Virus record (IMG/VR): IMGVR_UViG_3300034020_000824
Location: 62,001 to 126,000 of that record
Strand: one strand, 5' to 3'
Length of the DNA stretch: 64,000 nucleotides
Source of the DNA: a virus
Part shown: positions 2,697 through 32,981 of the stretch, one piece after another
Layout of the letters: each line of letters starts with the position of its first letter
How positions within the stretch are numbered: the stretch's first letter is position 1
Program-made: the position numbers and the translations under genes
The notes under the pieces: generated by a model
Database searches by the model: none
What the model was told of the DNA's origin: nothing
The model's input: only the letters and a program-made list of their open reading frames with translations

Positions 2697-2719
2697 GGGA
2701 CCTTCGGGTCCCTTTTTTT
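2697..2719 (+). terminator. Rho-independent terminator after gp23
   Basis: GGGACC-TTCG-GGTCCC hairpin with a UUCG tetraloop followed by seven T residues. It separates the capsid transcript from gp3. Confidence 0.9.
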
Positions 2720-2722
2720 ATA

Positions 2723-2730
2723 TCTAAATA
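2723..2730 (+). promoter_or_regulatory. Late-promoter-like box TCTAAATA before gp3
   Basis: One-base variant of TATAAATA, 10 bases before the gp3 ATG and immediately after the terminator U-tract. Variant boxes of this type recur at 12319, 28763 and 48915. Confidence 0.45.
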
Positions 2731-2739
2731 AAAATAAAA

Positions 2740-3760: not shown

Positions 3761-5224
3761 ATGTCTCATTTGGTGATATCAAAAAAGAATGAGGTTTATC
3801 TGCAAATAGAGGCAGAACCTCATATCTACTATGAATTGAAAGACGCATTTCAATTTGAAGTACCTAATGCAAAATTTTCACCTTCTTATAAGAATAAGTG
3901 GTGGGACGGAAAAATTTATTTGTTTAGTGTAGATACAAGAGAAATCTATATTGGTCTTTTAGATAAGGTAATTCAGTTCTGTAAGGACCACAATTATACT
4001 TATGAGTTCACGAATAATAAGTTTTATGGTCTTCCTTTTGAGATAAATGAGAACATCTCAAAGGAAGGTGTAAAGGATTATATGACGGCAATCAGTAGAC
4101 ACGCCCCACGCGATTATCAAATTGAGGGAGTATACGACGCCTTAAGACATAATCGTAAATTATTGATATCTCCAACTGCTTCGGGAAAGTCATTGATGAT
4201 ATATTCTCTTGTGAGATACTACGTTGAGAAGCAGCAAAATATTCTCGTAGTTGTTCCGACGACTTCCCTTGTAGAACAAATGTATAAAGATTTTGCAGAT
4301 TATGGATGGGATGTTGGTTCATACTGCCACAAGATATACGCTGGTAAGGAAAGAGAAACTGATTCCCAAGTTATTATTACCACTTGGCAGTCTATTTACA
4401 AACTTCCCAAGCAGTATTTTTCCAGATTTAATGTAGTCGTAGGAGATGAGGCACACCAATTTAAATCCAAGTCATTAATATCTATAATGACGAAACTTTG
4501 TGATGCAAAATACCGTTTTGGATTCACCGGAACACTTGATGGGTCTCAAACTCATAAGTGGGTTTTGGAAGGTTTATTTGGACCTTCATATAAAATTATC
4601 AAGACGGATGAACTGATGCAGAAAGGTCATCTTGCCAAATTGGACATTAAGGTTTTACTATTGAAGCATCCTCCCCACAGGTTTGAAGTATTTGAGGATG
4701 AGGTTCAGTATATTATTAATCACCCAAAGAGAAATAACTTTATAAAAAATCTTGCTCTTGATTTAAAGGGTAATAGTCTTGTTCTTTTTGCCAGAGTAGA
4801 AGGTCACGGGCAACCACTTTACGAACTCATAAATAATAGCAAAACTGACAATAGACACATATTCTTTGTTCATGGTGGGGTTGCTACCGAAGAACGAGAA
4901 TTAGTCAGAGAAATTACCGAAAGAGAGAATAATGCAATCATCGTTGCTTCCTACGGCACTTTTTCTACTGGTGTCAATATCAGAAATCTTCATAATGTTA
5001 TATTTGCTTCGCCTAGCAAATCAAGGATACGAAATCTCCAATCCATCGGAAGAGTCTTGCGAAAAGGAGAAAACAAAGTAAAGGCAACTTTATATGATAT
5101 TGCCGATGATATTAGTTACAAGTCAAGAAAGAATTATACACTCAATCACTTGATAGAAAGAATCAAGATTTATAATGAAGAAAACTTTAATTATGATATT
5201 GTAAATATACCACTTAAAGATTAA
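3761..5224 (+). CDS. uvsW: UvsW ATP-dependent helicase
   Basis: A 487-residue superfamily 2 helicase, the size of T4 UvsW. Walker A is SPTASGKSLM (about residues 136-145), the DEAH box is in VVGDEAHQFK, and motif VI is QSIGRVLRKG near residue 430. The N-terminal approximately 100 residues form the UvsW-specific DNA-binding domain (NKWWDGKIYLFS). In T4, UvsW unwinds R-loops and remodels branched DNA, switching origin-dependent initiation to recombination-dependent replication. It is followed after one base by a small Sm-like gene. Confidence 0.95.
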   Translation: MSHLVISKKNEVYLQIEAEPHIYYELKDAFQFEVPNAKFSPSYKNKWWDGKIYLFSVDTREIYIGLLDKVIQFCKDHNYTYEFTNNKFYGLPFEINENISKEGVKDYMTAISRHAPRDYQIEGVYDALRHNRKLLISPTASGKSLMIYSLVRYYVEKQQNILVVVPTTSLVEQMYKDFADYGWDVGSYCHKIYAGKERETDSQVIITTWQSIYKLPKQYFSRFNVVVGDEAHQFKSKSLISIMTKLCDAKYRFGFTGTLDGSQTHKWVLEGLFGPSYKIIKTDELMQKGHLAKLDIKVLLLKHPPHRFEVFEDEVQYIINHPKRNNFIKNLALDLKGNSLVLFARVEGHGQPLYELINNSKTDNRHIFFVHGGVATEERELVREITERENNAIIVASYGTFSTGVNIRNLHNVIFASPSKSRIRNLQSIGRVLRKGENKVKATLYDIADDISYKSRKNYTLNHLIERIKIYNEENFNYDIVNIPLKD

Positions 5225-19981: not shown

Positions 19982-20317
19982 ATGTCTGTAAAAATTGCTC
20001 TATTAAAATCTGGAGAATCAGTAATTGCCGATATTAAGGAGTTGATTTCTGAAGATAAAGTATGTGGATATTTGTTCACGAATCCGCATAAAATGAAGAT
20101 CAGCAATTCAATCTTCTTAACAGAAGAACCAATAGAACCAGAAGATGGTACAGTTAGTGTAACATTTTCTTCCTGGATTCTCTTTACAAGTGATAATGAG
20201 ATTCCAGTTCGTCTAGATTGGGTTGTGACAATTGTTGAACCAGTAGAGGCTATCAAACAAATGTATGAGGAAAAAGTAAATGGAAAGGAATGTGAAGTGT
20301 CTTCTCTTGAAGGTTGA
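19982..20317 (+). CDS. Sm-like (LSM-like) phage protein
   Basis: The start at 19982 (MSVKIALLKSGESVIADIKEL) gives 111 residues. The beginning KSGESVIADI followed by strands YLFTNPHKMKIS and VSVTFSSWILF and a closing RLDWVVTIVEPVEAIKQMY fits the Sm-like proteins described from cyanophages. It is one of three in the window (5226, 20280). It lies directly before the DNA polymerase gene. RNA binding is inferred from fold similarity only. Confidence 0.75.
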   Translation: MSVKIALLKSGESVIADIKELISEDKVCGYLFTNPHKMKISNSIFLTEEPIEPEDGTVSVTFSSWILFTSDNEIPVRLDWVVTIVEPVEAIKQMYEEKVNGKECEVSSLEG

Positions 20318-20534
20318 TACTATCTTAATTACCGAAATTGTTGAGATTGGATCCGAACTTGGTGAACCTGATTGTAAGTTAATTAATCCATATGAATTTT
20401 TTAGTGTGGATGATATGAAACCCTGGCCCGAGGTTACTAATCAGACCGAATTAATGATTCATTCTGATAGTATTCTCACAATCGCAGAACCAACTCCCGA
20501 AATCGTTAACAAGTATCTTGAATTAACTGCCTGA
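20280..20534 (+). CDS. Small Sm-like protein, 84 residues
   Basis: A shorter relative of the preceding gene, with LLKVDTILITEIVEI at the start, LINPYEFFSV and closing strand DSILTIAEPTPEIVNKYLEL. It overlaps the previous gene by 38 bases in another frame. The start may be the ATG at 20280 or the GTG at 20292, which has a purine-rich lead. Its stop shares a base with the gp43 start. Confidence 0.65.
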   Translation: MERNVKCLLLKVDTILITEIVEIGSELGEPDCKLINPYEFFSVDDMKPWPEVTNQTELMIHSDSILTIAEPTPEIVNKYLELTA

Positions 20535-23035
20535 TGAATTTTTATACAAACGTGCAAATGGTTGGGGACCACTTCTTGGTTCGTGGTTATGAAAATGGTA
20601 GACATTTTATGACCCGTGAGAAGTTCTCTCCTACTCTTTTTGTTCCGTCTAAAAAAACAACCAAATATACGACACTTCAGGGAGAATATGTAGAACCTAT
20701 TCAACCTGGTTCTGTAAGGGATTGTAGAGAGTTTATTAAGAAGTATACTGATGTACAAAACTTTAAAATTTACGGAAACGACAAGTACATCTATCAATAT
20801 ATTTCGGACAAATATCCGGAAAATGAAATTAAGTTTGATATTAGTAAAATTAAACTTACCACAATTGACATTGAGGTTGCATCCGAAAATGGATTTCCTG
20901 ATGTGGAAAATGCGGCAGAAGAAGTACTACTCATTACACTTCAAGACTATAATACGAAACAAATTCGTACTTGGGGATTGGGTAAGTTTGATAATAATCA
21001 ATCAAATGTTTCTTACCGAGGATTCTCTGATGAGTATAGTCTATTAAATGATTTTATTCACTGGTGGATGATTGAGGATAATACTCCAGAGGTTATTACT
21101 GGTTGGAACAGTGAACTTTATGATATTCCCTATCTCGTTCGTCGCCTGGATAGAGTTTTGGGTGAGAAATTGATGAAGCGTATGTCACCCTGGGGTCTTG
21201 TGACTGAGGATGAAGTTTACATATCTGGAAGAAAGCACATTTCCTATGATATTGGTGGTATTAGTCAATTAGATTACATTAAACTTTATAAGAAATTCAC
21301 TTATAAAGCGCAGGAATCTTATCGTCTAGATCATATTGCCAGCGTAGAACTCAATCAGAAAAAACTGGATCACTCTGAGTTTGATACTTTTAAGGACTTC
21401 TATACTAAAGGTTGGCAGAAGTTTGTAGAATACAACATCGTTGACGTAGAACTTGTTGACCGTTTGGAAGACAAGATGAAACTGATTGAACTTGCCTTGA
21501 CTATGGCATATGATGGTAAGGTAAACTATGAGGATGTGTTTTCTCAGGTAAGAATGTGGGATACGATTATCTATAATTATCTTAAGCAGAGGAATATTGT
21601 AATTCCTCCGAAAGAAAAAACTGATAAAGATTCCAAGTATGCTGGAGCTTATGTAAAAGAACCAATTCCTGGAAAGTATGATTGGGTGGTTAATTTTGAC
21701 TTAAACAGTCTTTATCCACATTTGATTATGCAATTTAATGTAAGTCCCGAAACACTTGTTGAAGAAAGGCATCCTAGTGTAACCGTGGATAAAATTCTCA
21801 ATCAGGAACTTACTTTTGATATGTATAAGGATTATGCAGTTTGCCCTAATGGTGCTATGTACCGTAAGGACATTCGTGGTTTTCTTCCAGAACTAATGGA
21901 GAAAATGTATAATGATCGTGTTGTATATAAGGAGAAGATGATTGAGGCAAAAAAACAGTATGAGAAGAAAAAATCAAAAGAACTTGAGAAAGAAATTGCA
22001 AGATGTAATAACATCCAAATGGCAAAAAAGATTTCTCTTAACTCTGCTTATGGTGCTATTGGGAATCAGTATTTCCGTTATTTCAAACTAGCAAATGCTG
22101 AGGCAATTACTCTTTCGGGTCAGGTTGCCATTCGTTGGATTGAAGAGAAGATGAACTCTTATCTAAACAAAGTTCTTAAAACTAAGAGTGTTGATTATGT
22201 TATTGCTTCTGATACTGACTCCATTTATCTCAATATGGGTCCTTTGGTTGAAACTGTATACCAGGGAAGAGAGAAAACTACTGAAAGCGTTGTTTCGTTC
22301 CTTGATAAGATCTGTAAGGTGGAACTTGAAAAGTATATTGAAGGTTGCTACCAAGAACTGGCGGACTATGTAAACGCATACGATCAAAAGATGCAAATGA
22401 AACGGGAGAATATTGCCGACCGTGGAATTTGGACTGCCAAGAAGCGTTACATTCTGAATGTTTGGGATAGTGAAGGTGTGCGATACACCGAACCTAAATT
22501 GAAGATGATGGGTATTGAGGCAGTCAAGTCTTCAACTCCGGCACCTTGCCGCAAGATGATTAAAGATGGTCTGAAGATTATGATGAGTGGAACTGAAGAT
22601 GAGGTGATTCGATTTATTGATGAGTGCCTCCAAGAATTTAAATCTCTTCCACCAGAGCAAATTGCTTTTCCCCGAACGGCATCTGATGTCCGTAAATATT
22701 ATTCATCATCAAATATTTACGCATCCAAAACTCCAATTCATGTTCGTGGAGCACTTCTCTTCAATCATTATATAAAAGAGAAAAAACTTACTAACAAATA
22801 TTCACTTATTAATAATGGTGAGAAAGTTAAGTATATTTTCTTAAAAAAACCCAATATTATACAAGAGAATGTTATTTCCTTCATCTCCGAATTTCCAAAG
22901 GAATTGGGACTTGACAAATATATTGATTATGAACTACAATTTGAGAAGAGTTTCTTAGACCCACTCAAGTCTATTTTGGATTCGATTGGATGGAAAACCG
23001 AACATACAACAAATCTTGATTCATTTTTTACCTGA
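20534..23035 (+). CDS. gp43: DNA polymerase gp43 (family B)
   Basis: An 833-residue family B polymerase, close to T4 gp43 (898). The exonuclease motif is in TTIDIEVASENGF, and the polymerase motifs are FDLNSLYPHLIMQ (A), KISLNSAYGAIGN (B) and ASDTDSIYLN (C). It replicates the phage genome with clamp gp45 and helicase gp41. No intron or intein interrupts it. The start overlaps the stop of the Sm-like gene, and its stop overlaps the next small gene (TGATG). Confidence 0.98.
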   Translation: MNFYTNVQMVGDHFLVRGYENGRHFMTREKFSPTLFVPSKKTTKYTTLQGEYVEPIQPGSVRDCREFIKKYTDVQNFKIYGNDKYIYQYISDKYPENEIKFDISKIKLTTIDIEVASENGFPDVENAAEEVLLITLQDYNTKQIRTWGLGKFDNNQSNVSYRGFSDEYSLLNDFIHWWMIEDNTPEVITGWNSELYDIPYLVRRLDRVLGEKLMKRMSPWGLVTEDEVYISGRKHISYDIGGISQLDYIKLYKKFTYKAQESYRLDHIASVELNQKKLDHSEFDTFKDFYTKGWQKFVEYNIVDVELVDRLEDKMKLIELALTMAYDGKVNYEDVFSQVRMWDTIIYNYLKQRNIVIPPKEKTDKDSKYAGAYVKEPIPGKYDWVVNFDLNSLYPHLIMQFNVSPETLVEERHPSVTVDKILNQELTFDMYKDYAVCPNGAMYRKDIRGFLPELMEKMYNDRVVYKEKMIEAKKQYEKKKSKELEKEIARCNNIQMAKKISLNSAYGAIGNQYFRYFKLANAEAITLSGQVAIRWIEEKMNSYLNKVLKTKSVDYVIASDTDSIYLNMGPLVETVYQGREKTTESVVSFLDKICKVELEKYIEGCYQELADYVNAYDQKMQMKRENIADRGIWTAKKRYILNVWDSEGVRYTEPKLKMMGIEAVKSSTPAPCRKMIKDGLKIMMSGTEDEVIRFIDECLQEFKSLPPEQIAFPRTASDVRKYYSSSNIYASKTPIHVRGALLFNHYIKEKKLTNKYSLINNGEKVKYIFLKKPNIIQENVISFISEFPKELGLDKYIDYELQFEKSFLDPLKSILDSIGWKTEHTTNLDSFFT

Positions 23036-23172
23036 TGAATTTACCTATTAACGAAAAAGAACTGAATACTATTATTAGTGCTATGAGGATTGGTGGAGAT
23101 ACTGCTCTTTATCAAAAACTTTGGTCTTATAAAATGAATTATCTCAATAAACAAAAACAGGAAGATAAATAA
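23035..23172 (+). CDS. Small protein downstream of gp43, 45 residues
   Basis: ATG at 23035 shares a base with the gp43 stop. It encodes MNLPINEKELNTIISAMRIGG..., helical and charged. Translational coupling supports expression. It is not recognised and is followed by a terminator. Confidence 0.6.
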   Translation: MNLPINEKELNTIISAMRIGGDTALYQKLWSYKMNYLNKQKQEDK

Positions 23173-23208
23173 CTACACCTGTTGAGAGTGCAATTTCACA
23201 GGAAGATT

Positions 23209-23229
23209 AGGTGCTTCAGGGCACCTTTT
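23209..23229 (+). terminator. Terminator after the gp43 operon
   Basis: AGGTGC-TTCAGG-GCACCT hairpin followed by TTT. Moderately strong. Confidence 0.75.
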
Positions 23230-23233
23230 CTAT

Positions 23234-23241
23234 TATAAATA
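23234..23241 (+). promoter_or_regulatory. Late promoter TATAAATA before the homing endonuclease
   Basis: Exact octamer, 26 bases before the endonuclease ATG. Confidence 0.65.
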
Positions 23242-23266
23242 GTAATGCACTCTCAATAGAATATAA

Positions 23267-24055
23267 ATGAACTATCTAAAGCATTATTGCAATCTTATCA
23301 GGAAAGTAGAGAACAGAACTCCACCTGAAGGTTATACAGAAAAGCATCATACATTTCCAAAAAGTATCTTTGGAAATAATAAAAGGATTGTAGTTCTAAC
23401 ATCAAGGGAACATTATATCGCTCACGCTTTATTGGAAAAGATTTATATTAAGAGGTGTGGAATTAAGGATAAAAAAACTACTAAAATGATTCACGCTCAT
23501 ATTTTAATGAAATCAAAAGGTAGATATTATAATTCTCATCTTTATGGAATCGCAAGAATTAGAATGTCCGAATCAAAGAAAGGTAAAAAACCATATGTTA
23601 TGACTGAGGAAACTAGAAATAAAATGAGTATATCTAAAAGTGGAGAAAATCATCCAAAATATGGAATACCCTTAACTCAAGAACATAGAAATAAATTATT
23701 AGATTCTTGGAAAGGAAAAATTCATAGTGAAGAATCTAAGTTAAAAATAAGTGAAGCAAATAAAGGCAGAATTCACACAGAAGAAACCAAGAAAAAATGG
23801 AGTGAAGCAAGAAGTGGGGAAAAGCATTATCTTTATGGAAAGAAACGAGATATTGAAATTGTAAATAAAATAGTGGAGAAGAAAAGTAAAGAATTTTCAA
23901 TTATAAATCCTCAGGGTGAAATTATTTGTGGGAAAAATATTACTAAATTTTGTAAAGAAAATAATTTAGATGTTGGAACTACTTGGAATCTTCTTAATTA
24001 TAAAAGGAATACGAAATCACATAAAGGTTATCGTGCTGTTCCTCAACAAAGTTGA
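23267..24055 (+). CDS. HNH homing endonuclease with NUMOD3 repeats
   Basis: A 262-residue free-standing homing endonuclease. The HNH domain is EKHHTFPKSIFGNNKR...REHYIAHALL (about residues 24-60). It is followed by several NUMOD3-type repeats (KMSISKSGENHPKYG, LKISEANKGRIHTEETK, KWSEARSGEKHYLYG), and a C-terminal NUMOD1/HTH-like segment (GKNITKFCKENNLD). It interrupts the gp43-uvsX junction. It would cut intron-less or endonuclease-less alleles of related phages. It is more AT-rich than its neighbours. The uvsX promoter starts inside its last codons. Confidence 0.92.
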   Translation: MNYLKHYCNLIRKVENRTPPEGYTEKHHTFPKSIFGNNKRIVVLTSREHYIAHALLEKIYIKRCGIKDKKTTKMIHAHILMKSKGRYYNSHLYGIARIRMSESKKGKKPYVMTEETRNKMSISKSGENHPKYGIPLTQEHRNKLLDSWKGKIHSEESKLKISEANKGRIHTEETKKKWSEARSGEKHYLYGKKRDIEIVNKIVEKKSKEFSIINPQGEIICGKNITKFCKENNLDVGTTWNLLNYKRNTKSHKGYRAVPQQS

Positions 24056-24080
24056 CTTGAAGTGGTTTTTGTAGTATAAT
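24052..24080 (+). promoter_or_regulatory. Promoter for uvsX, TTGACT-17-TATAAT
   Basis: Near-consensus promoter overlapping the homing endonuclease stop codon, 9-21 bases before the possible uvsX starts. It keeps uvsX transcribed despite the upstream insertion. Confidence 0.8.
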
Positions 24081-24088
24081 CATTAAAA

Positions 24089-25117
24089 ATGGGTAGAAAA
24101 ATGGCAGATTCTGGATTAAATTTTTTGCGTGACATAGTGAAGGAGATTGGTGGAGAATACACTCAACTCGCTTCGGATATTGATGAAACTGAAACTTATG
24201 TGGATACGGGTTCGTACATTTTTAATGCTCTTGTATCCGGCAGTATATTTGGTGGTGTATCTGGGAATAAGATTACTGCAATCGCTGGTGAAACTTCTAC
24301 TGGAAAAACTTTCTTCAGTCTTGCCGTCGTTAAAAATTTCCTTGATAATAATCCTACTGGATATTGTCTGTATTTTGATACTGAAGCAGCAATCACAAAA
24401 TCCCTTCTGGAAAGTAGGGGAGTTGACACAAGTCGTCTGGTGGTTGTCAATGTAGTTACGGTAGAAGAGTTTCGTACCAAAACACTCAAGGCAGTTGATA
24501 TTTACCTAAAGAAAAAAGAGGATGAAAGAAACCCTTGTATCTTTGTATTAGATTCTCTGGGAATGCTTTCTACCAACAAAGAAATTAATGATGCTCTGGC
24601 AGAGAAGGATACTCGTGATATGACGAAGGCACAACTTATCAAAGGTGCCTTCCGTATGCTGACTCTCAAATTGGGACAGGCAAAGATTCCTATGCTAGTG
24701 ACAAATCACACCTATGAGTCGATGTCTCTTTATGGTGGTAAACAAATGTCTGGTGGTTCTGGATTGCAATATGCAGCGTCTACAATTATCTATCTTTCTA
24801 AGTCAAAAGAAAAAGATGGAACGGAAGTAATTGGAAACATTATCAGGGCAAAGACTCACAAATCACGTTTAAGTAAGGAGAATCAAGATGTTGAAATCCG
24901 TCTGTATTATGATGAGCGCGGTCTTGATCGTTACTACGGTCTTCTTGAACTTGGTGAGATTGGTGGACTCTGGAAGAATGTAGCAGGTCGTTATGAGATT
25001 GATGGTAAGAAACTTTATGCCAAAGAAATCTTAAAAAATACCGAAAAATATTTTACACCAGAAGTAATGGAAAAACTTGATGTGATTGCCAAGGGTGAGT
25101 TTAGTTATGGTGTATGA
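24089..25117 (+). CDS. uvsX: UvsX recombinase (RecA-like)
   Basis: A 342-residue RecA-family protein. Walker A is AGETSTGKTFF (about residues 66-76), Walker B is in CIFVLDSLGML, and an NHTYESMSLYGGKQMSGGSG segment corresponds to loop 2. It forms filaments on single-stranded DNA with UvsY as loader. The ATG at 24101 (MADSGLNFLRDIV) is an alternative start; the promoter leaves only a very short leader for 24089, favouring the internal start slightly. It overlaps the next gene by four bases. Confidence 0.95.
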   Translation: MGRKMADSGLNFLRDIVKEIGGEYTQLASDIDETETYVDTGSYIFNALVSGSIFGGVSGNKITAIAGETSTGKTFFSLAVVKNFLDNNPTGYCLYFDTEAAITKSLLESRGVDTSRLVVVNVVTVEEFRTKTLKAVDIYLKKKEDERNPCIFVLDSLGMLSTNKEINDALAEKDTRDMTKAQLIKGAFRMLTLKLGQAKIPMLVTNHTYESMSLYGGKQMSGGSGLQYAASTIIYLSKSKEKDGTEVIGNIIRAKTHKSRLSKENQDVEIRLYYDERGLDRYYGLLELGEIGGLWKNVAGRYEIDGKKLYAKEILKNTEKYFTPEVMEKLDVIAKGEFSYGV

Positions 25118-25659
25118 AAAATATTCGTATAATAAAAACTAATGTAAATGTTTCTAAAATATTAGAACAACTTAAGCAATATCCTGAAGACTGGGGTTCT
25201 CAAAAAAATATTGAAGACTCCGAACAACTAGACCCCACAGAATATACTGTTACTGTGGATGTGTTGCAACTTATAATGGGTGGAGTTGAAAAAGAGAACC
25301 AATATGTCGGGAATACTGAAATATGTATTAAAACCCCGGCATATGAAAAACATACGGAGATTCTTAATTACTTGGGAAAGTATTTTAAGAAACTCCGTCG
25401 TTGTGGATTCTTGGCACTTCCAGTCGGTGAAATTGTGGGTTCTCATATTGACGAAGGAACTTATTATCTTACGAAGGATAGATATCACCTTTCCATTCAG
25501 GGAAAATACGAGTATACTGTTGGGGATGAAACTACAACTATTGAACCGGGAACACTATTTTGGTTCAATAATAAACTACCCCATAAGGCAGTTAATATTG
25601 GCGACAACATTAGAATTACTTTTGTATTCGATGTTCCGCATCATAAACGAAATCTTTAA
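25114..25659 (+). CDS. Aspartyl/asparaginyl beta-hydroxylase-like protein
   Basis: A 181-residue protein. The C-terminal half resembles the aspartyl/asparaginyl beta-hydroxylase family: GSHIDEG gives the HxD iron-binding pair (around residue 111), RYHLSIQGKYEYTVG the core strands, and LPHKAVN the second histidine with ITFVFDV the closing strand. The expected activity is 2-oxoglutarate- and Fe(II)-dependent hydroxylation; the substrate is unknown. It lies between uvsX and the split gp41. Confidence 0.82.
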   Translation: MKNIRIIKTNVNVSKILEQLKQYPEDWGSQKNIEDSEQLDPTEYTVTVDVLQLIMGGVEKENQYVGNTEICIKTPAYEKHTEILNYLGKYFKKLRRCGFLALPVGEIVGSHIDEGTYYLTKDRYHLSIQGKYEYTVGDETTTIEPGTLFWFNNKLPHKAVNIGDNIRITFVFDVPHHKRNL

Positions 25660-25667
25660 TTAAAATA

Positions 25668-26300
25668 ATGGAACGACTTGAACTTACAATCCTTAGAAAC
25701 TTAGTATTTAATGAAGACTATGCCAGAAAGGTTATTCCTTTTATTCAACCGGAGTACTATGAGCAAAGAGTAGAAAAGATAGTTTTTGAGGAAATTGTTG
25801 AGTTCATCGTTAAGTATGGTTCTTCAATTACAATAGAAGCACTCAATATTGAGATTGATAATCGTAGAGATTTGACAGAATCTGAAAATAAGGAAATAGT
25901 AGAATTACTTTCTAAACTTAATGATAGTCCTGTGGATAAGCAGTGGATACTGGATACTACCGAAAAGTGGTGCCGTGACCGTGCTATTTACTTGGCACTC
26001 ATGGAGTCCATTCATATTGCCGATGGTAAGGATGATAAAAAAGGTAGAGATGCCATTCCCAGTATTCTTTCCGATGCCTTGGCAGTATCTTTTGATAATA
26101 ATATAGGTCACGATTATCTTCAGAATTATGAGGAACGATATGAGTTTTATCATCGTAAAGAAGATAAGATTGAATTTGACCTAGAATATTTCAACAAAAT
26201 CACAAAAGGTGGATTACCTAATAAGACTCTGAATATTGCTCTTGCCGGTTGCGTTCATCCAGAAACTATAGTTAAAATTAGATTTAGGAAGATTTCTTGA
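25668..26300 (+). CDS. gp41: Helicase gp41, N-terminal half fused to a 16-residue N-intein
   Basis: A 210-residue protein. Residues 1-194 are the N-terminal domain and the start of the RecA-like core of the T4 gp41 DnaB-type helicase, ending KTLNIALAG just before the Walker A motif. Residues 195-210 (CVHPETIVKIRFRKIS) are an intein N-terminus: Cys1 nucleophile and a block A pattern, ending in a stop codon. The matching C-intein and C-extein start at 26985. By itself this half lacks the P-loop lysine and would be inactive. Splicing in trans would join LAG to TGVGKS and give a 459-residue helicase, close to T4 gp41 (475). Its end overlaps the antisense endonuclease by 17 bases. Confidence 0.93.
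   Translation: MERLELTILRNLVFNEDYARKVIPFIQPEYYEQRVEKIVFEEIVEFIVKYGSSITIEALNIEIDNRRDLTESENKEIVELLSKLNDSPVDKQWILDTTEKWCRDRAIYLALMESIHIADGKDDKKGRDAIPSILSDALAVSFDNNIGHDYLQNYEERYEFYHRKEDKIEFDLEYFNKITKGGLPNKTLNIALAGCVHPETIVKIRFRKIS
26250..26297 (+). other. Split intein N-fragment (16 residues)
   Basis: Codons for C-V-H-P-E-T-I-V and eight further residues, then TGA. Canonical split inteins have N-fragments of about 90-120 residues; AceL-TerL (about 25) and VidaL (about 16) are the known very short types. The basic, strand-forming tail (VKIRFRKIS) would dock on the C-intein. Confidence 0.88.
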
Positions 26301-26952
26301 TTTTGGAGTTTGGTGCTGGTTCTCCAGTTCCAAACTTCCAACCTTCATTTAGTTTTATATCAACTTCTTCTGGTGATATTCTTTTCCATCCCTTTGTTCC
26401 GGGCAAATGCATTACCTTTTTTCCTTTATGCGCCTTTCCCCCTAATGATGATCGTGTTTTTCTTCCTTCATTAGATGCCCAATAACTAAATTCTTTTGAC
26501 CCCATCTTCTTTCCTCCAAGAGATGCCCTTTCTTTTCTTCCCTCTTCGGTGCTCCAATAGTAAAAATTTTTTGTTTGATTTGTTAAGTAATCTTGTTTTT
26601 GACTTTCTATTCCTTTTATTGTCCATTTTTTTCTTTCATTTGATGGAATGGAAAAAATACCAATATTATTGTCACGACAAAATTCTCCTGTTATTTTTCT
26701 ATATTGTGGAGATAAGTTTGCTCCCAACATTTTCATAGACCTTAAATCATTTGGATTTTTATATATCTTCCACAACAAATAATGTGCCAATATATGTTCT
26801 CTAACATTTAAATATGTTAGATTAAAATCTTCATCACTTCCCCCCATATGTTTGGGAATAATATGATGTTCGTGTAACCCAGAATATTTTTTATAGTTTT
26901 CTTTTCTTGACTTATTGCCTTCACATAAGTTAGAATAGATTTGATTAAACAT
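26284..26952 (-). CDS. HNH homing endonuclease, antisense inside split gp41
   Basis: The start at 26952 (MFNQIYSNLCEGNKSRKENY) gives 222 residues and has an ACAGGGAA leader; a longer reading from 27006 runs into the C-intein gene and is unlikely. The HNH motif is HEHHIIPKHMGGSDEDFN followed by REHILAHYLLWKIY (residues about 27-65), similar to the protein at 23267. Two repeats (STEEGRKERASLGGKK, SNEGRKTRSSLGGKA) form a NUMOD-like DNA-binding tail. It ends convergent with the gp41 N-half, overlapping by 17 bases. Placement between intein halves, on the opposite strand, suggests it mobilises the split intein. Confidence 0.92.
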   Translation of the reverse strand: MFNQIYSNLCEGNKSRKENYKKYSGLHEHHIIPKHMGGSDEDFNLTYLNVREHILAHYLLWKIYKNPNDLRSMKMLGANLSPQYRKITGEFCRDNNIGIFSIPSNERKKWTIKGIESQKQDYLTNQTKNFYYWSTEEGRKERASLGGKKMGSKEFSYWASNEGRKTRSSLGGKAHKGKKVMHLPGTKGWKRISPEEVDIKLNEGWKFGTGEPAPNSKIKKSS

Positions 26953-26984
26953 TTCCCTGTCCCTGCTAATGGTATTTATACAAA

Positions 26985-27359
26985 ATGTGGATTGAAAAAG
27001 AAACATCGATTGCTGAAATCAAAACATTACTTGATAATGGATATGAAGTGGAGGTTGATTCTCCCGATGGATATGTTCCTGTTAATTTTTTTATTAATAA
27101 GGGGATGTATGAAGAATATGAATTGCTTATGATGGGGGGTAATAAAGTTAGTTGTAATGAGTCCCATTTGTTTGAAACTACTGAAGGTTGGATTTCCGCT
27201 AAAGAAATGGAACAATCTAACTTAATATACAAATTGATTACTAACGAGGGTATTAAAATTGGTCGGGTTTATAAAAACAATAAACAAATACCTATTGTAG
27301 ATATTAATGTAAATCATCCAAATCATAGATATTACACTAATGGAGTTTCCTCTCACAAT
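26985..27359 (+). other. Split intein C-fragment (125 residues)
   Basis: From the Met at 26985 to the terminal His-Asn. It contains the intein blocks other than A, plus about 40 N-terminal residues that must complement the 16-residue N-fragment. A +1 Thr acceptor follows. Confidence 0.88.
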
Positions 27360-28157
27360 ACTGGAGTTGGAAAATCTCTCTTTATGTGTCACGTTGCCAG
27401 TTCTGCCTTACTACAGAATAGAAATGTTCTTTATATTACTCTTGAAATGGCAGAAGAAAGAATTGCCGAAAGAATTGATGCGAATCTTCTTAATGTTCCA
27501 ATTCAACAACTGATTGATTTACCACGCTCAGCATTTGAGAATAAAGTAAATGGTATTTCCAAGAAGACTCGGGGTTCTTTGGTAATCAAAGAATATCCTA
27601 CTGCTTCGGCACACTCCGGGCACTTCAAGGCACTTCTGAATGAACTTGCTCTGAAGAAATCATTTAGACCTGATATTATCTTTATTGACTATTTGAATAT
27701 TTGCTCCTCCTCACGATTTAAGAGTGGTAGTAATATCAATTCTTATACTTTGGTTAAGTCTATTGCCGAAGAACTTCGTGGTTTGGCAGTAGAGTTTAAT
27801 GTTCCTATTATGAGTGCGACACAGACGACTAGGAGCGGTTTTGGTTCTTCCGATGTAGAATTGACCGATACTTCTGAATCGTTCGGTCTTCCTGCTACTG
27901 CCGACCTTATGTTTGCTCTGATTAGTACCGAGGAATTAGAAGGTCTAGGGCAGATTATGGTGAAGCAACTTAAAAACAGATATAATGACCCAACAATCTT
28001 TAAGCGTTTCGTTGTTGGAATTGACCGTGCCAAAATGAGACTTTATGATGTAGAACAGTCCGCACAAAACGACATACTTGACAGCGGTAAAGAAGAGGAG
28101 TATAATAATGAAGAAAATAAACCAAAAAAATCATTTGAGGGATTTAAATTTTCATGA
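26985..28157 (+). CDS. gp41: C-intein fused to helicase gp41, C-terminal half
   Basis: A 390-residue protein. Residues 1-125 are a C-intein: block B region NKVSCNESHLFE (with the conserved His), block F IPIVDINVNHPNHRYYTNG, and the terminal SSHN. The extein starts with Thr (+1) at 27360: TGVGKSLFMCHVASSALL, which completes Walker A (LAG + TGVGKS). The rest is the RecA-like helicase core: TLEMAEERIAERID, Walker B IIFIDYLNIC and MSATQTTR. It therefore supplies the ATPase of the replicative helicase only after trans-splicing. The stop overlaps the MazG-like gene. Confidence 0.93.
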   Translation: MWIEKETSIAEIKTLLDNGYEVEVDSPDGYVPVNFFINKGMYEEYELLMMGGNKVSCNESHLFETTEGWISAKEMEQSNLIYKLITNEGIKIGRVYKNNKQIPIVDINVNHPNHRYYTNGVSSHNTGVGKSLFMCHVASSALLQNRNVLYITLEMAEERIAERIDANLLNVPIQQLIDLPRSAFENKVNGISKKTRGSLVIKEYPTASAHSGHFKALLNELALKKSFRPDIIFIDYLNICSSSRFKSGSNINSYTLVKSIAEELRGLAVEFNVPIMSATQTTRSGFGSSDVELTDTSESFGLPATADLMFALISTEELEGLGQIMVKQLKNRYNDPTIFKRFVVGIDRAKMRLYDVEQSAQNDILDSGKEEEYNNEENKPKKSFEGFKFS

Positions 28158-28564
28158 CACAACGAGTTGATTTTAATAAGTATCAGAACTTCGTAGATGC
28201 CGTAACTTCTGATGCATCCAAAGATTTCCTTGCTCTTTCTGACCGTATGGTTCAGTTGGATGAGAAAGGTGCTAATATTGAGCGTCTTCTGACTGCCTCT
28301 GTGGGAATTAATGCCGAGGGTGGTGAGTTTTTAGAAATAGTCAAGAAAATGGTCTTTCAAGGTAAGTCTTGGAATGATGAGACCCGTACTCACTTGATTA
28401 AGGAACTGGGTGATACGATGTGGTATGTGGCACAAGCGTGTATTGCTCTTGATGTCTCTTTTGATGAAGTAATTCAGACTAATATTGATAAACTGATGAA
28501 GCGTTATCCAGACGGATTTTTTGACGCATACTATAGTGAAAATCGTGAAGATGGAGACATTTGA
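28154..28564 (+). CDS. mazG: MazG-like nucleotide pyrophosphohydrolase
   Basis: A 136-residue protein with the all-alpha NTP pyrophosphatase pattern: EGGEFLEIVKKM followed by KELGDTMWYVAQACIALDVS and MKRYPDGFF, carrying the E-x-x-E / E-x-x-D metal-binding pairs. Cyanophage MazG has been proposed to alter nucleotide or ppGpp pools and hydrolyses dGTP/dCTP in vitro for some phages. It overlaps gp41-C by four bases and the next gene by a base or so, so it is translated with the replication genes. Confidence 0.85.
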   Translation: MTQRVDFNKYQNFVDAVTSDASKDFLALSDRMVQLDEKGANIERLLTASVGINAEGGEFLEIVKKMVFQGKSWNDETRTHLIKELGDTMWYVAQACIALDVSFDEVIQTNIDKLMKRYPDGFFDAYYSENREDGDI

Positions 28565-28743
28565 TGACTAAAACAGTATCTGTTAAGATGGATGTTCGGA
28601 CTGCCGCTGCCGTTCGTCAAATTCTTTTTGAGAATCAAAAAGGTTATACCTATGATGAACTTTCTGTTCCTCCTCGTATTTCTGACATTCGTGCCGTGAT
28701 TTTAGACCTTGATGAAAAGATTGGTGCTGTAGTTGGTGAATGA
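28564..28743 (+). CDS. Small protein after mazG, 59 residues
   Basis: ATG at 28564 overlaps the MazG stop. The 59 residues (MTKTVSVKMDVRTAAAVRQIL...) have the composition of a small helical protein with a ribbon-helix-like start. Unknown function. Confidence 0.65.
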   Translation: MTKTVSVKMDVRTAAAVRQILFENQKGYTYDELSVPPRISDIRAVILDLDEKIGAVVGE

Positions 28744-28762
28744 CCCTTCGGTAGTCTTAAGC

Positions 28763-28770
28763 ACTAAATA
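28763..28770 (+). promoter_or_regulatory. Late-promoter-like ACTAAATA
   Basis: Variant octamer, 15 bases before the ATG at 28785, after the operon that ends at 28743. Confidence 0.45.
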
Positions 28771-28784
28771 AAAATAAAATACTT

Positions 28785-29918
28785 ATGGCAGAATCTATTC
28801 CAGCAAATAGAGGTGATTTATTTGAGGTATTTTTTGCTGCCGCAGTTGCTGCTCGGTTTGTAAAAAGAGCAAAACTAAAGACTTCAAAAACATTACCAAC
28901 TGTAAATACATCTGATGTTGATATTATATTGACTGAAATGATGAAGCGTGGGTATGCTAAACAAGTTAATGATGTTGGGAGTGCTGTAATTGATACGGTT
29001 TCAGTAACAGTATCTGTTCCTAGAAAGGCTCAAGATTTTTTATCAGTTAGAGCAAATTGGAATAAAGTTTCAGATTTAAGATCCGGTGCAGTATCATTTG
29101 TTAATTCTCATAGTAGATTGAATGCTCAAGCAAGGGGACTATCAATTAATGAAAGAGAAGATAATATTAGAATATCTGCTGCAGGAACATTAGACCAAAA
29201 AGGAACTAAAGCAGATGTTAACGTAGAAGTTAATTCCCCCACCAATCCTGATAAAAGGTTTAGAAATATTGACTATTCTTTAAAGGTTTCTGGTGGGGAA
29301 CAATTCCATCAAGTATCGGGACAAGGATTTGATAAGTTTTTAAGTATTTTTGGTGAGATGGGTTTAGATGTATCTCCAATTCAAGAAAAATATCAGAAAT
29401 TTATTGATAATTTTTTTGATATTGAAGTATACACTAAAAAGTATCCATCAAGGGAATCGGCAAAGTCTACTGGTGGTGGAGAACAGTTAAAAAAAGCGGC
29501 AAGACTTGTTTATGCATATGCAACTGAAAAATTAAATGAAGGATTAGATACTGTAGAATCTACGGATACTAAAGTTAAATTTGCTGATTATATTATTTTT
29601 GGACTATCTAGAAATGTAAATACCGAACTAGTTAAATTTACAAGCACAGGTCAAGTAAAGACCAGAGTTGCCAATAGAGAGTTTAGAGATATACTTGCAA
29701 ACAGTAGATATAGTGCTAGAATGAATGCATCTGGAGACCCCAAAATAGAGATTTATCTTTCAAAACCGGATGGAACTAGACTTTCTGGTAATAGTAATTT
29801 AATTATTCAAATTAGATATAAAATGGAAGTAGCAAGTTCAAATGCTTCTATGGGAAAATCATATAGATTTTATCCAAGAAATTACCTTGAAGCACAACCA
29901 GGAATGTTTCTAATATGA
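28785..29918 (+). CDS. Unrecognised 377-residue phage protein
   Basis: A protein with no motif I can assign with confidence. The N-terminal segment NRGDLFEVFFAAAVAARFVKR recalls starts seen in nuclease-like or terminase-associated proteins, and the rest alternates charged and beta-rich stretches (FRNIDYSLKVSGGEQFHQVSGQGFDKFL). A late-promoter-like box precedes it, and it is followed by a short overlapping gene at 29915. It could be a nuclease of the PD-(D/E)XK type, but the catalytic residues are not clear. Confidence 0.7.
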   Translation: MAESIPANRGDLFEVFFAAAVAARFVKRAKLKTSKTLPTVNTSDVDIILTEMMKRGYAKQVNDVGSAVIDTVSVTVSVPRKAQDFLSVRANWNKVSDLRSGAVSFVNSHSRLNAQARGLSINEREDNIRISAAGTLDQKGTKADVNVEVNSPTNPDKRFRNIDYSLKVSGGEQFHQVSGQGFDKFLSIFGEMGLDVSPIQEKYQKFIDNFFDIEVYTKKYPSRESAKSTGGGEQLKKAARLVYAYATEKLNEGLDTVESTDTKVKFADYIIFGLSRNVNTELVKFTSTGQVKTRVANREFRDILANSRYSARMNASGDPKIEIYLSKPDGTRLSGNSNLIIQIRYKMEVASSNASMGKSYRFYPRNYLEAQPGMFLI

Positions 29919-30163
29919 AAGACCTCCAAGCATTTCTTAATAATATTATTGATATCTTCACCACTAAAAAATCATTACCAAAAGATGTAATGAATGATTT
30001 TATAAAGTATTTTTACTTTACTCTTGATAATGAAATTAAATTAAATAAATCAGAATTGTTAAAGAATAAATATATTAAGATTAGAAAAAATGGATTAAAC
30101 TATATTGTTGCTAATAAAGAAGCAATAATGGCGAATATTCGTAAGAAAAAATTAAGTAAGTAA
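29915..30163 (+). CDS. Small lysine-rich protein, 82 residues
   Basis: Overlaps the preceding stop (ATGA). The sequence (KDLQAFLNNIIDIFTTKKSLPKDV...) is helical and basic toward the C-terminus (NIRKKKLSK). It may be an accessory of the 28785 protein, since they are coupled. Unknown function. Confidence 0.65.
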   Translation: MKDLQAFLNNIIDIFTTKKSLPKDVMNDFIKYFYFTLDNEIKLNKSELLKNKYIKIRKNGLNYIVANKEAIMANIRKKKLSK

Positions 30164-31482
30164 TGAAAAGTTTCTTTCAGTTCATATCAGAAGCAACTTC
30201 TGCAGCAGACCAAGCTCAGCGTGTTGGATTGCAGGGTGACGGGCACGGTGGTTGGTATGATAGAAGAACTAATGAGTTTGTTGCCAAAACAGAAGGTGGA
30301 AAGTTAAAGTTCTATAATAAGAGACAGAGAGTAGGAAAGGACCCAAATCAAACTCCACACGAAAAGGATGTTCCTTCTCCAAGTTATAATGACCCAAATG
30401 CTCAACAACCACCACAGCAGCAGCAAGAACCAGCACCAGAGCAGCAACCAGTAGCACAGGAACCTCAACAACCGGTGGCAACGCCACCACCAGTTCCTAA
30501 GACCAAGGGAACTCTTACGATTGCTTTTGGTCGTTTTAATCCCCCTACGGTCGGACACCAGCAATTGATGGATGTTGCCGCTGCTTCATCACAGGCAGAT
30601 GGTGGAGACTATCTAATCTATCCATCCAGAAGTCAGGATAAGAAAAAGAATCCGCTGGACCCTGATACAAAGATTTCATATATGAGACAGATGTTTCCTG
30701 CTCATAGTGAAAGAATTGTGAATGATGCCGCAAATAAAACTATCTTTGATGTTCTTAAGAAGGCACATAATGATGGATATACGAATGTTAGAATTGTGGG
30801 TGGTTCTGACCGTGTAAAGGAGTTTGAGAAACTTTCTGGTAATTATAACGGGCAACTGTATGCCTTTGATAATATTGAAGTAGTTTCTGCCGGTGATAGA
30901 GACCCCGATGCCAAAGGTGTTGAGGGAATGTCGGCTTCCAGAATGAGACTTGCCGCTGCCGAAGGAGATTTTCGTAAGTTTAGAGAAGGTCTTCCGCCAG
31001 AGATGAAGCGTAAATCGGCACAGGAATTATTTGATTCCGTAAGAGCATCTATGGGTATTAATGAAAGTTGGAACCTCTGGGAAATTGCTCCTAAGTTTGA
31101 TTACCAGACTCTTCGTGAGAATTATATTTCAGAAAAAATCTTCCAAATCGGTCAACTAGTTGAGAATCTGAATACCGGACTTGTTGGAAGAATCCTGCGT
31201 CGTGGTACTAACTATCTGATTTGTGTAACCGAATCTGGTATGATGTTTAAGTCCTGGATTAAGGATGTAATGGAAACAAAGAAATATACCGAAGTTACGA
31301 TGAATAGAAAGATGAGAGAACCTGGAAAACCAAATACTTTAGTTGGAACATCTGGATTCTATAAGTATGTTGCGGATATGACTCCCGAGGCACCCGAAAC
31401 AAATCTACAATACGGAGCAAAACCCTATCGTGGTTATAAGGTATCCAATATCAGGGAGTTTATAAATAAGTATAGAAAATAG
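30163..31482 (+). CDS. Nucleotidyltransferase with capsid-targeting-like N-terminus
   Basis: A 439-residue protein. The N-terminus MKSFFQFISEATSA matches the T4 internal-protein propeptide (MKTYQEFIAEA), with a predicted gp21 cleavage after ISE at residue 10. Residues about 78-108 are a Pro/Gln-rich linker. Residues about 112-285 form a cytidylyltransferase-like Rossmann domain: AFGRFNPPTVGHQQLM has the (H/T)xGH motif and MSASRMRLAAAEG matches the second nucleotide-binding motif. The C-terminal part (LVGRILRRGTNYLICVTES) is a separate beta-rich domain. Cyanophage annotations call it cytidylyltransferase or NMN adenylyltransferase-like. The targeting peptide suggests it is packaged in the head and injected, like T4 Alt. 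Confidence 0.82.
   Translation: MKSFFQFISEATSAADQAQRVGLQGDGHGGWYDRRTNEFVAKTEGGKLKFYNKRQRVGKDPNQTPHEKDVPSPSYNDPNAQQPPQQQQEPAPEQQPVAQEPQQPVATPPPVPKTKGTLTIAFGRFNPPTVGHQQLMDVAAASSQADGGDYLIYPSRSQDKKKNPLDPDTKISYMRQMFPAHSERIVNDAANKTIFDVLKKAHNDGYTNVRIVGGSDRVKEFEKLSGNYNGQLYAFDNIEVVSAGDRDPDAKGVEGMSASRMRLAAAEGDFRKFREGLPPEMKRKSAQELFDSVRASMGINESWNLWEIAPKFDYQTLRENYISEKIFQIGQLVENLNTGLVGRILRRGTNYLICVTESGMMFKSWIKDVMETKKYTEVTMNRKMREPGKPNTLVGTSGFYKYVADMTPEAPETNLQYGAKPYRGYKVSNIREFINKYRK
31461..31468 (+). promoter_or_regulatory. Late promoter TATAAATA inside the end of the previous gene
   Basis: Exact octamer, 35 bases before the ATG at 31503. Confidence 0.6.
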
Positions 31483-31502
31483 TAAAGTAGTAAAGTCTTA
31501 AT

Positions 31503-32981
31503 ATGAAAAATCATATTGCCGAAGAATTGCCAGCAAGAAAATTTGCTCCTGCTGCTGCCGGTTCTGGTCCTACTGACAAGAACGATAAAAAAGAAGATTC
31601 TGGAAAGTCTCCTGAGAAAAAGGCAAAGCAGGCAGTATATGATATTCGTTATAGAGCAAGAAGAGAAGATATTCCACTTCCTCAGGCATTTTCTCAATAT
31701 ATGCAAAATAGCAGTATGGGAGGTGAGGAAAGAAAGATGGTCAAGGCAAAACTATTCGGCAAAGAAGGTAGTAGTATGAAGGCAGAAGATTTTAATCCTG
31801 CATTTAAGAGTGCCGCATCAGATTCTCTTGCGAAGGCACTCTTTAAGGTTTTTGTTGAAGGAACCGAGCAAGAACAAGAACCAATTTCTCTAACCTATGT
31901 TGAAGAATTGGATTCGGCAGAGCACAGAAAGTATAAGGTAAGAGTAACCGATAAGAATACTAAAAGGTCTTATGTGAGAATGGCAACCCGTGAGAAAATT
32001 AATCAACTTCGTGCGAATCCAAATATTGAATCCGTTGAGATGACTCAGTATGGCGAACCTTATGAGGGTGAGAGAAAGAAGGGTTCTCAAACGGCAAGAG
32101 TTGCGGCAGGTAAAGGATTAGACCCCGTAGGTCAAGAAGATGGTGATGTTGATAATGATGGAGATAAGGATAAGTCCGATAAGTACCTAATGAAGAGGCG
32201 TGGTGCGATTGGAAATGCTATCGCAACTCGTAAAGAAGAGTTCATTCACGAAGCAGAAACCGAAGATTCTAATACCACAAAAATTGATTATAAAAAAGGA
32301 AAAGTTAAGAATAAAGTAGTTGTTGCTCCCGAACAAGGTAAGGGACTAATGGCACATAATGAACTTGAGGGTGAACTGATTGCCGAAAAGGCAGTTAGTC
32401 AGGCACAACAGCGTTTTATGGGTATGGTTTATGCTGCCAAAAAAGGAAAACCTGCCGCAAGTCCTGAAGTTGCCCAAGCTGCAAAAGAAATTACCAAAAA
32501 AGAAGCAAAGAAGTTTGCATCAACCAAGCACAAAGGTCTTCCAGAAAAAGTAAAGGAAGAAATGGAATGTGGTTCTGATGATAAGAAAAAAAAGAATGGT
32601 GAAGAGGAAGACCCCCGTTCTATGAAAACTGTGAGGGATAGATTAAGAACTAAACTTGGATTGATGGGTCTTAAGATGTCTTATGAACCAGAAGGTGAGC
32701 AGATTGATGAGCTGAATCGTTCCGAAAGAGAAACCGGTATTAATACAAAGACTGGTAGACCAACTCAAAAAGGTGGCGACCCTAGAGTTAAAGAAAGAAA
32801 TAAACCACCCCTGAAGTATGGTGGTTCAAGGCAAGAACCAAAGAGTGGAGAAAAACCACCCTCTCCTAGTGAGGAGGCTAGAAAAAAGGGTGTTCTTAGT
32901 CCTTTAGAACGTAAAGCAGCACTACGCCGTAATGCTAGAAAAGCAGCAGCAGACTTTAGAATGGATACTAGAGGAACCTAG
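31503..32981 (+). CDS. Large charged virion-type protein with DUF3008-like domain
   Basis: A 492-residue, K/E-rich protein. It contains cyanophage-specific modules: a beta segment KYKVRVTDKNTKRSYVRMAT (residues about 145-165), a DVDNDGDKDKSDKYLMKRR segment that resembles a calcium-binding loop, and a DUF3008-like stretch (AVSQAQQRFMGMVYAAKKGKP...FASTKHKGLPEKV, residues about 300-350). The late promoter and modular, low-complexity character suggest a virion or internal head protein. Function is unknown. Confidence 0.8.
   Translation: MKNHIAEELPARKFAPAAAGSGPTDKNDKKEDSGKSPEKKAKQAVYDIRYRARREDIPLPQAFSQYMQNSSMGGEERKMVKAKLFGKEGSSMKAEDFNPAFKSAASDSLAKALFKVFVEGTEQEQEPISLTYVEELDSAEHRKYKVRVTDKNTKRSYVRMATREKINQLRANPNIESVEMTQYGEPYEGERKKGSQTARVAAGKGLDPVGQEDGDVDNDGDKDKSDKYLMKRRGAIGNAIATRKEEFIHEAETEDSNTTKIDYKKGKVKNKVVVAPEQGKGLMAHNELEGELIAEKAVSQAQQRFMGMVYAAKKGKPAASPEVAQAAKEITKKEAKKFASTKHKGLPEKVKEEMECGSDDKKKKNGEEEDPRSMKTVRDRLRTKLGLMGLKMSYEPEGEQIDELNRSERETGINTKTGRPTQKGGDPRVKERNKPPLKYGGSRQEPKSGEKPPSPSEEARKKGVLSPLERKAALRRNARKAAADFRMDTRGT

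What the first reader, a model, noticed from the sequence alone, without database searches (positions are those of the whole stretch)
25668..28157. Fractured gp41 helicase with an ultra-short (16-residue) N-intein at the P-loop
Seen: gp41 is in two + strand genes. The first ends ...ALAG followed by CVHPETIVKIRFRKIS and a stop; the second begins with a 125-residue sequence ending ...GVSSHN followed by TGVGKS. Removing the intein halves gives LAG-TGVGKS, a proper Walker A motif, and a 459-residue protein close to T4 gp41 (475). Established: gp41 helicases split by inteins are known from metagenomes (gp41-1, gp41-8), and very short N-inteins are known (AceL-TerL about 25, VidaL about 16 residues). 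Inference: an atypical split intein in a cyanophage gp41, at a position where each half is inactive, so phage replication depends on trans-splicing.
Basis: partly seen in the sequence, partly recalled or inferred. Interest (0 to 1): 0.96.

Follow-up and report, generated by a model that had tools for sequence, protein, structure and literature searches.

The report
Viral helicase split by tiny intein
In a virus of cyanobacteria the gene for the DNA-unwinding helicase is cut in two at its ATP-binding site, and the pieces very probably rejoin through a self-splicing protein whose front part is only 16 amino acids long; related viruses carry the same element whole, split, or with the helicase in three pieces, which shows how such splits come and go.

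Summary
gp41 lies in two + strand ORFs: 194 extein residues plus a 16-residue N-intein, then a 125-residue C-intein plus 265 extein residues. A relative on a 128.5-kb contig has gp41 uninterrupted: 459 residues, 99.6% identical to the joined exteins, lacking exactly the 1,110-bp insert. This is a 'fractured gene' with an atypical (S1) split intein; its nearest solved relative is VidaL, which sits in UvsX and is split at the same place. I found the element in 88 other viral contigs; all 86 alignable C-inteins (window included) keep the catalytic residues tested. The series is the real gain: 6 contigs have a contiguous intein, 4 are split without endonuclease, 66 are split with an insert, 12 lack the N end. 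A 12-nt scar shows one loss of the endonuclease with the split kept. N-inteins go down to 14 residues (shortest characterised: 15). In L048 and L055 gp41 is in three pieces, with a gp41-1 split intein at the second break. Splicing itself is not shown, and key earlier papers could not be read. New variant of a known kind.

The parts
25668..26249 (+). gp41 N-extein, 194 aa, ends LAG
   Evidence: PHROG_19 E 5.6e-42 for the whole ORF; empty-site allele L194
26250..26297 (+). N-intein CVHPETIVKIRFRKIS, 16 aa
   Evidence: Cys1 in 77 of 77 loci; core pN/pS 0.13; beta strand 7-13 in the model of the contiguous form
26298..26300 (+). stop TGA of the N piece; its A is the first base of the 687-bp insert that interrupts a Trp codon of the contiguous form
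   Evidence: window against L061
26284..26952 (-). HNH homing endonuclease, 222 aa from the conserved Met (ORF open to 27006); overlaps the end of the N-intein coding sequence
   Evidence: PHROG_655 homing endonuclease E 7e-15; Pfam HNH E 0.012, below its cut-off; relatives start at the same Met
26973..26980 (-). TATAAATA, T4-type late promoter motif (motif recalled) for the antisense HNH gene
   Evidence: the only - strand TATAAATA in the 64-kb window against 12 on +; present in 65 of 72 related loci with enough sequence
26985..27359 (+). C-intein, 125 aa, starts with its own ATG, ends SSHN
   Evidence: 86 of 86 keep the catalytic residues; VidaL is the best PDB hit, E 1.1e-11
27360..28157 (+). 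gp41 C-extein, 265 aa, begins TGVGKS (+1 Thr; rest of Walker A), with stop
   Evidence: PHROG_19 E 1.2e-81, DnaB_C E 3.7e-16 for the whole ORF

Best explanation
The window carries a fractured gp41 replicative helicase gene of a T4-like cyanophage. A class 1 mini-intein (141 aa in all) is inserted in the P-loop between LAG and TGVGKS and is itself split after its second beta strand, at the S1 position used by VidaL, by a HNH homing-endonuclease gene in the opposite orientation. Both halves are translated separately (each has its own start and stop codon: sequence). The short N-intein strand then docks into the gap of the pre-formed C-intein, Cys1 takes the LAG acyl group, it passes to Thr+1, Asn125 cyclises, and a 459-residue gp41 with an intact Walker A motif is released (mechanism inferred from class 1 inteins). 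The endonuclease probably spreads the element to empty gp41 alleles and may be lost afterwards (inferred). The insert supplies the last base of the stop codon of the N piece and the first two bases of the start codon of the C piece, so one insertion or deletion can switch the intein between contiguous and split.
For: Exact ORF anatomy. Helicase profile continuous across the break. Natural empty site: L194 and others, 99.56% aa over 459 residues; DNA flanks 95.8% and 97.3% identical, insert 26250-27359 absent. 88 other contigs with the element. Catalytic residues in 86 of 86 and 77 of 77; purifying selection. Contiguous form L061-L065 and L067, predicted as a Hint fold at pLDDT 94.1 with residues 14-18 as the loop that holds the split; VidaL first among solved structures by sequence (6e-13) and fold (Foldseek 6.7e-12; Z 21.2, rmsd 1.5 over 138). 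Only the two pieces, no intact gp41, in 10 of 10 records. Transfer between phages: L001 C-intein 98.9% nt identical to the window's while exteins are 77-78%.
Against: No splicing assay. C-intein dN/dS (median 0.27) is higher than for the exteins (0.11 and 0.09), so constraint is weaker. Pfam's intein model matches only at E 0.05-0.06, below its cut-off, and the contiguous form not at all. C-intein and extein distances correlate (Mantel r 0.69, against 0.79 between the two exteins), so descent is mostly shared, with some transfers. The window's C piece has no obvious Shine-Dalgarno sequence. Block B reads NxxH, not the usual TxxH. L071 has a stop in its C-extein.
Confidence: 0.93

Rival explanations
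1. The two gp41 halves work as two separate polypeptides that assemble without splicing, as reported for the mobE-split NrdA of phage Aeh1 and suggested for T4 topoisomerase; the intein remnants are dead.
For: Such split enzymes are known in T4-like phages (passages of PMC2988022). C-intein dN/dS is higher than that of the exteins.
Against: A dead intein would not keep every catalytic residue in 86 of 86 copies nor a 14-residue N tail at pN/pS 0.13. The break lies inside the Walker A motif, which needs a continuous backbone (inference). Contiguous copies of the same intein sit in the same gene, 98.7% nt identical in the C-intein between L062 (cis) and L054 (split).
Confidence: 0.04
2. A group I or II intron with an intron-borne HNH gene interrupts gp41 and is removed from RNA.
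For: HNH genes often ride in introns (general knowledge).
Against: No Rfam match at E <= 1 in window 20000-32000, both strands. The codons after LAG and before TGVGKS are conserved as protein. The contiguous relatives read straight through as protein.
Confidence: 0.01
3. Sequencing or assembly artefact, or a decaying pseudogene.
For: The source is an unnamed IMG/VR record.
Against: Identical locus on L003, L004 and L006 from other samples, and variants on 85 more contigs; intact reading frames on both sides.
Confidence: 0.01

Closest known systems
VidaL split intein (PDB 6vgv, 6vgw)
   Same: Cysteine-dependent, 16-residue N-intein split at the same place after the second strand (CLPKEAVVQVRLTKKG in L085); C-intein starts with Met; best match by sequence and fold; also a P-loop insertion; also found split without endonuclease (L085) and contiguous (L087).
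   Different: VidaL sits in a UvsX-like recombinase (FAGESG / SGKS), two P-loop positions further on, with +1 Ser; about 30% identical. In the VidaL-bearing record G012 gp41 has no intein at this site.
gp41-1 split intein (PDB 6qaz, 6riz)
   Same: Same host gene, split intein; present in the same gp41 gene in L048, L055, L029, L175 and L062-L065.
   Different: Other site (TRSGY / SSSD), canonical split with an 88-residue N part in L048; fold match weaker (Z 18.0).
Fractured genes (Dassa et al. 2009, doi 10.1093/nar/gkp095; not held, content recalled)
   Same: A DNA-metabolism enzyme gene broken by a split intein with a free-standing homing-endonuclease gene between the halves.
   Different: Here an antisense HNH gene and an S1 split; I could not check whether this gp41 site is among the loci of that paper.
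PolB16 OarG split intein (PMC10189870)
   Same: S1-type natural split with 15-residue N part.
   Different: Ser1/Ser+1, cysteine-independent, in PolB; weaker fold match (8cpn, E 1.5e-4). Relatives of our intein go down to 14 residues (L024, L074).
Split UvsX of Pseudomonas phage PA5oct
   Same: 17-residue N-intein CLPETAKVKIRLSKKQS and related C-intein, 30% identical, separated by another gene; cultured, and the C piece is noted as seen by mass spectrometry in the record.
   Different: Host gene UvsX; the ORF between is annotated only as hypothetical.

Membership tests
Class 1 intein | Cys or Ser at position 1 | tested here: met
   Cys in 77 of 77
Class 1 intein | Block B His; block F Asp/His; penultimate His and terminal Asn; +1 Cys, Ser or Thr | tested here: met
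   His61, Asp106, His111, His114, His124, Asn125 and +1 Thr in 86 of 86
Class 1 intein | Hint (horseshoe) fold | tested here: met
   Model of contiguous L061, pLDDT 94.1; VidaL Z 21.2
Class 1 intein | Protein splicing activity | not testable with these tools
   needs expression
Pfam Intein_splicing PF14890 | Score above the curated cut-off | tested here: not met
   13.6-13.8 bits against 35.8; the model also misses the contiguous form
Atypical (S1, VidaL-type) split intein | Natural split right after the second beta strand, N part of about 15-35 aa | tested here: met
   16 aa here; 14-23 aa in 71 split loci, window included; split in the loop after strand 7-13
AceL-TerL / GOS-TerL (S2) type | Split after the first helix, N part 25-37 aa | tested here: not met
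   Split lies before the first helix 25-33; definition from a passage of PMC13014065
Fractured gene | Split intein halves flank a free-standing homing-endonuclease gene inside a conserved enzyme gene | tested here: met
   HNH gene 26284-26952 (-), PHROG_655 E 7e-15
gp41-1 family | Insertion at TRSGY / SSSD of gp41 | tested here: not met
   Insertion is at LAG / TGVGKS; the gp41-1 site is a second site in L048 and others
Homing endonuclease | Cleaves the empty site | not tested
   needs a cleavage assay

The most novel reading that the evidence does not exclude
One intein in one essential gene cycles between contiguous, split with endonuclease, split without endonuclease, and possibly contiguous again, each switch taking a single insertion or deletion; in some of these phages the replicative helicase is made as three polypeptides and assembled by two mutually orthogonal trans-splicing reactions, one of them with an N-intein of only 14-17 residues.
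Probability: 0.5. Interest if true: 0.85.

Novelty: new variant of a known kind. Interest (0 to 1): 0.74.

Why it matters
Natural split inteins are believed to come from contiguous ones (passage of PMC12707363). Here near-identical contiguous and split versions of one intein, with and without the endonuclease, and empty gp41 alleles all exist in related phages, so the cost, origin and reversal of gene fracture can be tested with natural sequences. The 14-residue N-inteins are shorter than the shortest characterised (15; abstract of PMC10189870), which matters for peptide-based protein labelling. The three-piece gp41 of L048 and L055 would be a natural version of the three-part assemblies that engineers build with two orthogonal inteins (e.g. 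passage of PMC11271493).

Tried and rejected
Intron: no Rfam match. AceL-TerL type: split position differs. Bacterial carriers: the alignment-based scan of genome contigs used two short patterns; 19 stretches matched a pattern, none encoded a relative; plasmids gave none at 1e-5. Phage isolates: of 318 phage records with some match to the C-intein, none reached 60% identity, and of 624 records matching gp41 DNA none covered 80% of the interrupted locus; both tools warn that near records may be left out. Frequency of empty sites: one search kept 80 of at least 594 loci; 79 are uninterrupted and 1 (L263) could not be read. The invaded contigs L003 and L004, whose N-exteins are 100% identical to the query, are not in that list, so it gives no frequency. 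VidaL phages carrying our gp41 intein: not found in 5 of 5 records; only one (G012) holds a gp41 match, uninterrupted over the matched residues 92-428.

Against or beside my reading: DARPin and ankyrin chains scored E 3e-9 to 1e-3 with the C-intein in the PDB sequence search; they vanish when the contiguous intein is the query, so I take them as chance. The census script labelled L061 and L067 'split+other' because their contigs end before the stop; I corrected them to contiguous. Rows dropped: L078-L080 (C-intein start missing) from the C-intein alignment; 12 contigs without the N end from N-tail counts; near-identical loci (63 to 49) before the transfer count. The trees carry warnings for long branches, and many forks are open. 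The insert gene next to VidaL in L083 looked Vsr-like to me by eye; the family search gave only phrog_22677, unknown function. The idea that the S-SRM01 'homing endonuclease' just before gp41 is a misnamed copy of the window's 25114-25659 gene was rejected: no similarity.

Literature: searches showed no paper naming a Walker A split intein in gp41 or a three-piece gp41, but I saw listings and passages only, and Dassa 2009 and Burton 2020 are not held; Neugebauer 2017 was seen only as a reference and its full text was not looked up. From memory, Neugebauer 2017 tested an intein called VidaL T4Lh-1; if T4Lh means T4-like helicase, a relative at this site may already be in print.

Full report
Anatomy. 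gp41 is broken inside its Walker A motif. The first ORF (25668-26300) gives 194 helicase residues ending LAG and then CVHPETIVKIRFRKIS. The second (26985-28157) gives 125 residues from MWIEKET to SSHN and then TGVGKS and the rest of gp41. One helicase profile, PHROG_19, runs without a gap from the first into the second. Between them, on the - strand, lies a 222-residue HNH homing-endonuclease gene (PHROG_655, E 7e-15), whose end overlaps the N-intein codons. Its relatives in other phages are homing endonucleases, one of them annotated MobE. A TATAAATA motif stands 21 bases before its probable start. It is the only one on the - strand of the window against 12 on the + strand, and 65 of 72 related loci with enough sequence have it. 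I infer late, antisense expression of the endonuclease.

The empty site. L194, on a 128,515-base record, has the same gp41 uninterrupted, 99.56% identical to the joined exteins over all 459 residues. The DNA is 95.8% identical on the left (24120-26248) and 97.3% on the right (27360-28789), and the 1,110 bases 26250-27359 are absent. This fixes the boundaries of the element and the predicted spliced product.

The family. Three scans of viral contigs gave 88 other contigs with the C-intein in gp41 at this site; many are near-copies (the 89 rows of the protein tree, three of them UvsX outgroups, hold 61 different sequences). After the correction of two labels, the census is: contiguous intein 6 (L061-L065, L067); split without endonuclease 4 (L005, L022, L059, L060); split with an antisense HNH gene, whole or remnant, 62; with a sense HNH gene 2 (L071, L168); with another insert 2 (L161, L162); N end not on the contig 12. 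Cys1 is present in 77 of 77 readable N ends, and the catalytic residues and +1 Thr in 86 of 86 C-inteins, window included. Median dN/dS is 0.27 for the C-intein (2,649 pairs) against 0.11 and 0.09 for the exteins, and pooled pN/pS is 0.13 over the first 14 N-intein codons (crude, pairs not independent). N-inteins of 71 split loci are 14 to 23 residues long: 38 have 16, 18 have 17, and two (L024, L074) have 14. Everything after residue 14 varies with the kind of insert, so the 14-residue core is probably the working part (inference).

How it works. The contiguous form L061 is predicted as a Hint fold with mean pLDDT 94.1; the second strand is residues 7-13, and the split falls in the loop before strand 19-24, the S1 position. 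The best solved match is VidaL by sequence (E 6e-13 with L061; 1.1e-11 with the window's C-intein) and by fold (Foldseek 6.7e-12; Z 21.2, rmsd 1.5 over 138 residues, next NrdJ-1 at 18.4). VidaL itself lies in a UvsX-like recombinase (L083-L086; named UvsX by resemblance to the annotated PA5oct gene). In L085 its N part is CLPKEAVVQVRLTKKG, 16 residues, and its C part begins with Met, so both inteins are split at the same position. The same states recur there: split without endonuclease in L085 (58 bases between the halves), contiguous in L087 and in Salicola phage SCTP-2, and split with another gene between in PA5oct. So a related intein, split at the same place, occupies the P-loops of two different RecA-fold enzymes. 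Trans-splicing itself is inferred.

One step makes or unmakes the split. Contiguous L061 reads ATT TCT TGG TGG ATT; the window reads ATT TCT TGA ... ATG TGG ATT. The 687-base insert thus sits inside a Trp codon, TG[A...AT]G, and supplies the last base of the stop and the first two of the start. L059 and L060 lack the endonuclease but keep the split: after TG they hold 12 bases, ATTATGGAATTT, identical to the left end of the inserts of L045, L047 and L057, and the start codon of their C piece comes from this remnant. That is a scar of endonuclease loss. The contiguous copies are nested in a clade with split, endonuclease-bearing ones (15 rows, SH-aLRT 96 for protein, and 99 for DNA), and the endonuclease-free splits fall in three places. 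This favours re-fusion and repeated loss, but repeated insertion of a homing endonuclease at one site would look alike, so the direction for the contiguous form is open. L050 and L055 keep only 54 and 67 matching residues of the HNH gene, which looks like decay.

Mobility. L001's C-intein is 98.9% identical in DNA to the window's while the exteins are 77.5% and 78.4%, and its HNH protein is only 37% identical: intein and endonuclease have separate histories. After removal of near-copies, 9 of 1,176 pairs have C-inteins over 97% and both exteins under 80% identical; one is split L054 against contiguous L062. Still, C-intein and extein distances correlate (Mantel r 0.69, against 0.79 between the exteins), so most descent is shared.

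Three pieces. In 9 of 88 contigs (L029, L048, L055, L062-L065, L080, L175) gp41 is interrupted again near residue 162 of the C-extein. In eight of these I saw a gp41-1-type N-intein after TRSG[YF] or its end; for L080 only the gap. For L048 it matches gp41-1 (6riz) at E 7e-52. L048 holds all three pieces on one contig: N piece to 1266, middle piece 1965-3086 (our C-intein, helicase core, gp41-1 N-intein), last piece 3901-4320; L055 likewise. Such a gp41 would need two orthogonal trans-splicing reactions. Other genes ride in the breaks: a metallo-protease-like ORF (L018, E 8e-5), a nucleotidyltransferase-like one (L182) and, at the second site of L175, a DNA methylase.

Dependence. In 10 of 10 records searched, window's own and one of 233,886 bases included, a whole gp41 query finds only the two pieces. 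The records may be fragments, so this supports but does not prove dependence on splicing.

Known or new. Fractured genes, S1 split inteins and gp41 inteins are known kinds. Passages and sections read: PMC13014065 (15-37-residue natural N parts; VidaL and PolB16 split after strand 2), PMC10189870 (abstract, introduction, one results section: 15 residues the shortest characterised), PMC2988022 (passages), PMC12707363 (passages), PMC6892783 (passages: split PolB with HNH gene in phage MIJ3). Dassa 2009 and Burton 2020 are not held, and Neugebauer 2017 was not looked up, so part of this may be in print. I file it as a new variant: new gene and P-loop site for a VidaL-type split among what I could read, with the contiguous-split-scar series, 14-residue N-inteins and the three-piece gp41 as the parts most likely to be new.

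Noticed in passing
window 23267-24055 (+): A second homing-endonuclease gene (NUMOD3, PHROG_655) between DNA polymerase gp43 and uvsX; the close relative L194 lacks the stretch 23160-24119.
   Followed up: partly
L088 760-3766 (Pseudomonas phage PA5oct): UvsX is split by a VidaL-type intein with a 17-residue N part; the N piece is annotated only as hypothetical, the C piece carries a mass-spectrometry note.
   Followed up: partly
L071 1819-2471: The C-extein after the intein is broken by a stop or frameshift and lacks about 26 residues in the alignment: assembly error, decay or a further interruption.
   Followed up: no
L175 1735-3286: The second break in gp41 holds a GIY-YIG-like gene (by eye) and an N6/N4 DNA methylase.
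   Followed up: partly
L042 1664-3195: A second, 34%-identical helicase-like match follows gp41 on the same contig.
   Followed up: no
L089 1500-3710 (Salmonella phage SP1): The terminase large subunit gene holds a contiguous intein-like stretch, related to the C-intein at 33%.
   Followed up: no
C-intein residues 46-100 (window 27120-27284): The middle of the C-intein varies strongly while residues 2-45 and 101-125 are nearly constant in 86 copies, as if the middle were exchanged or under other selection.
   Followed up: no
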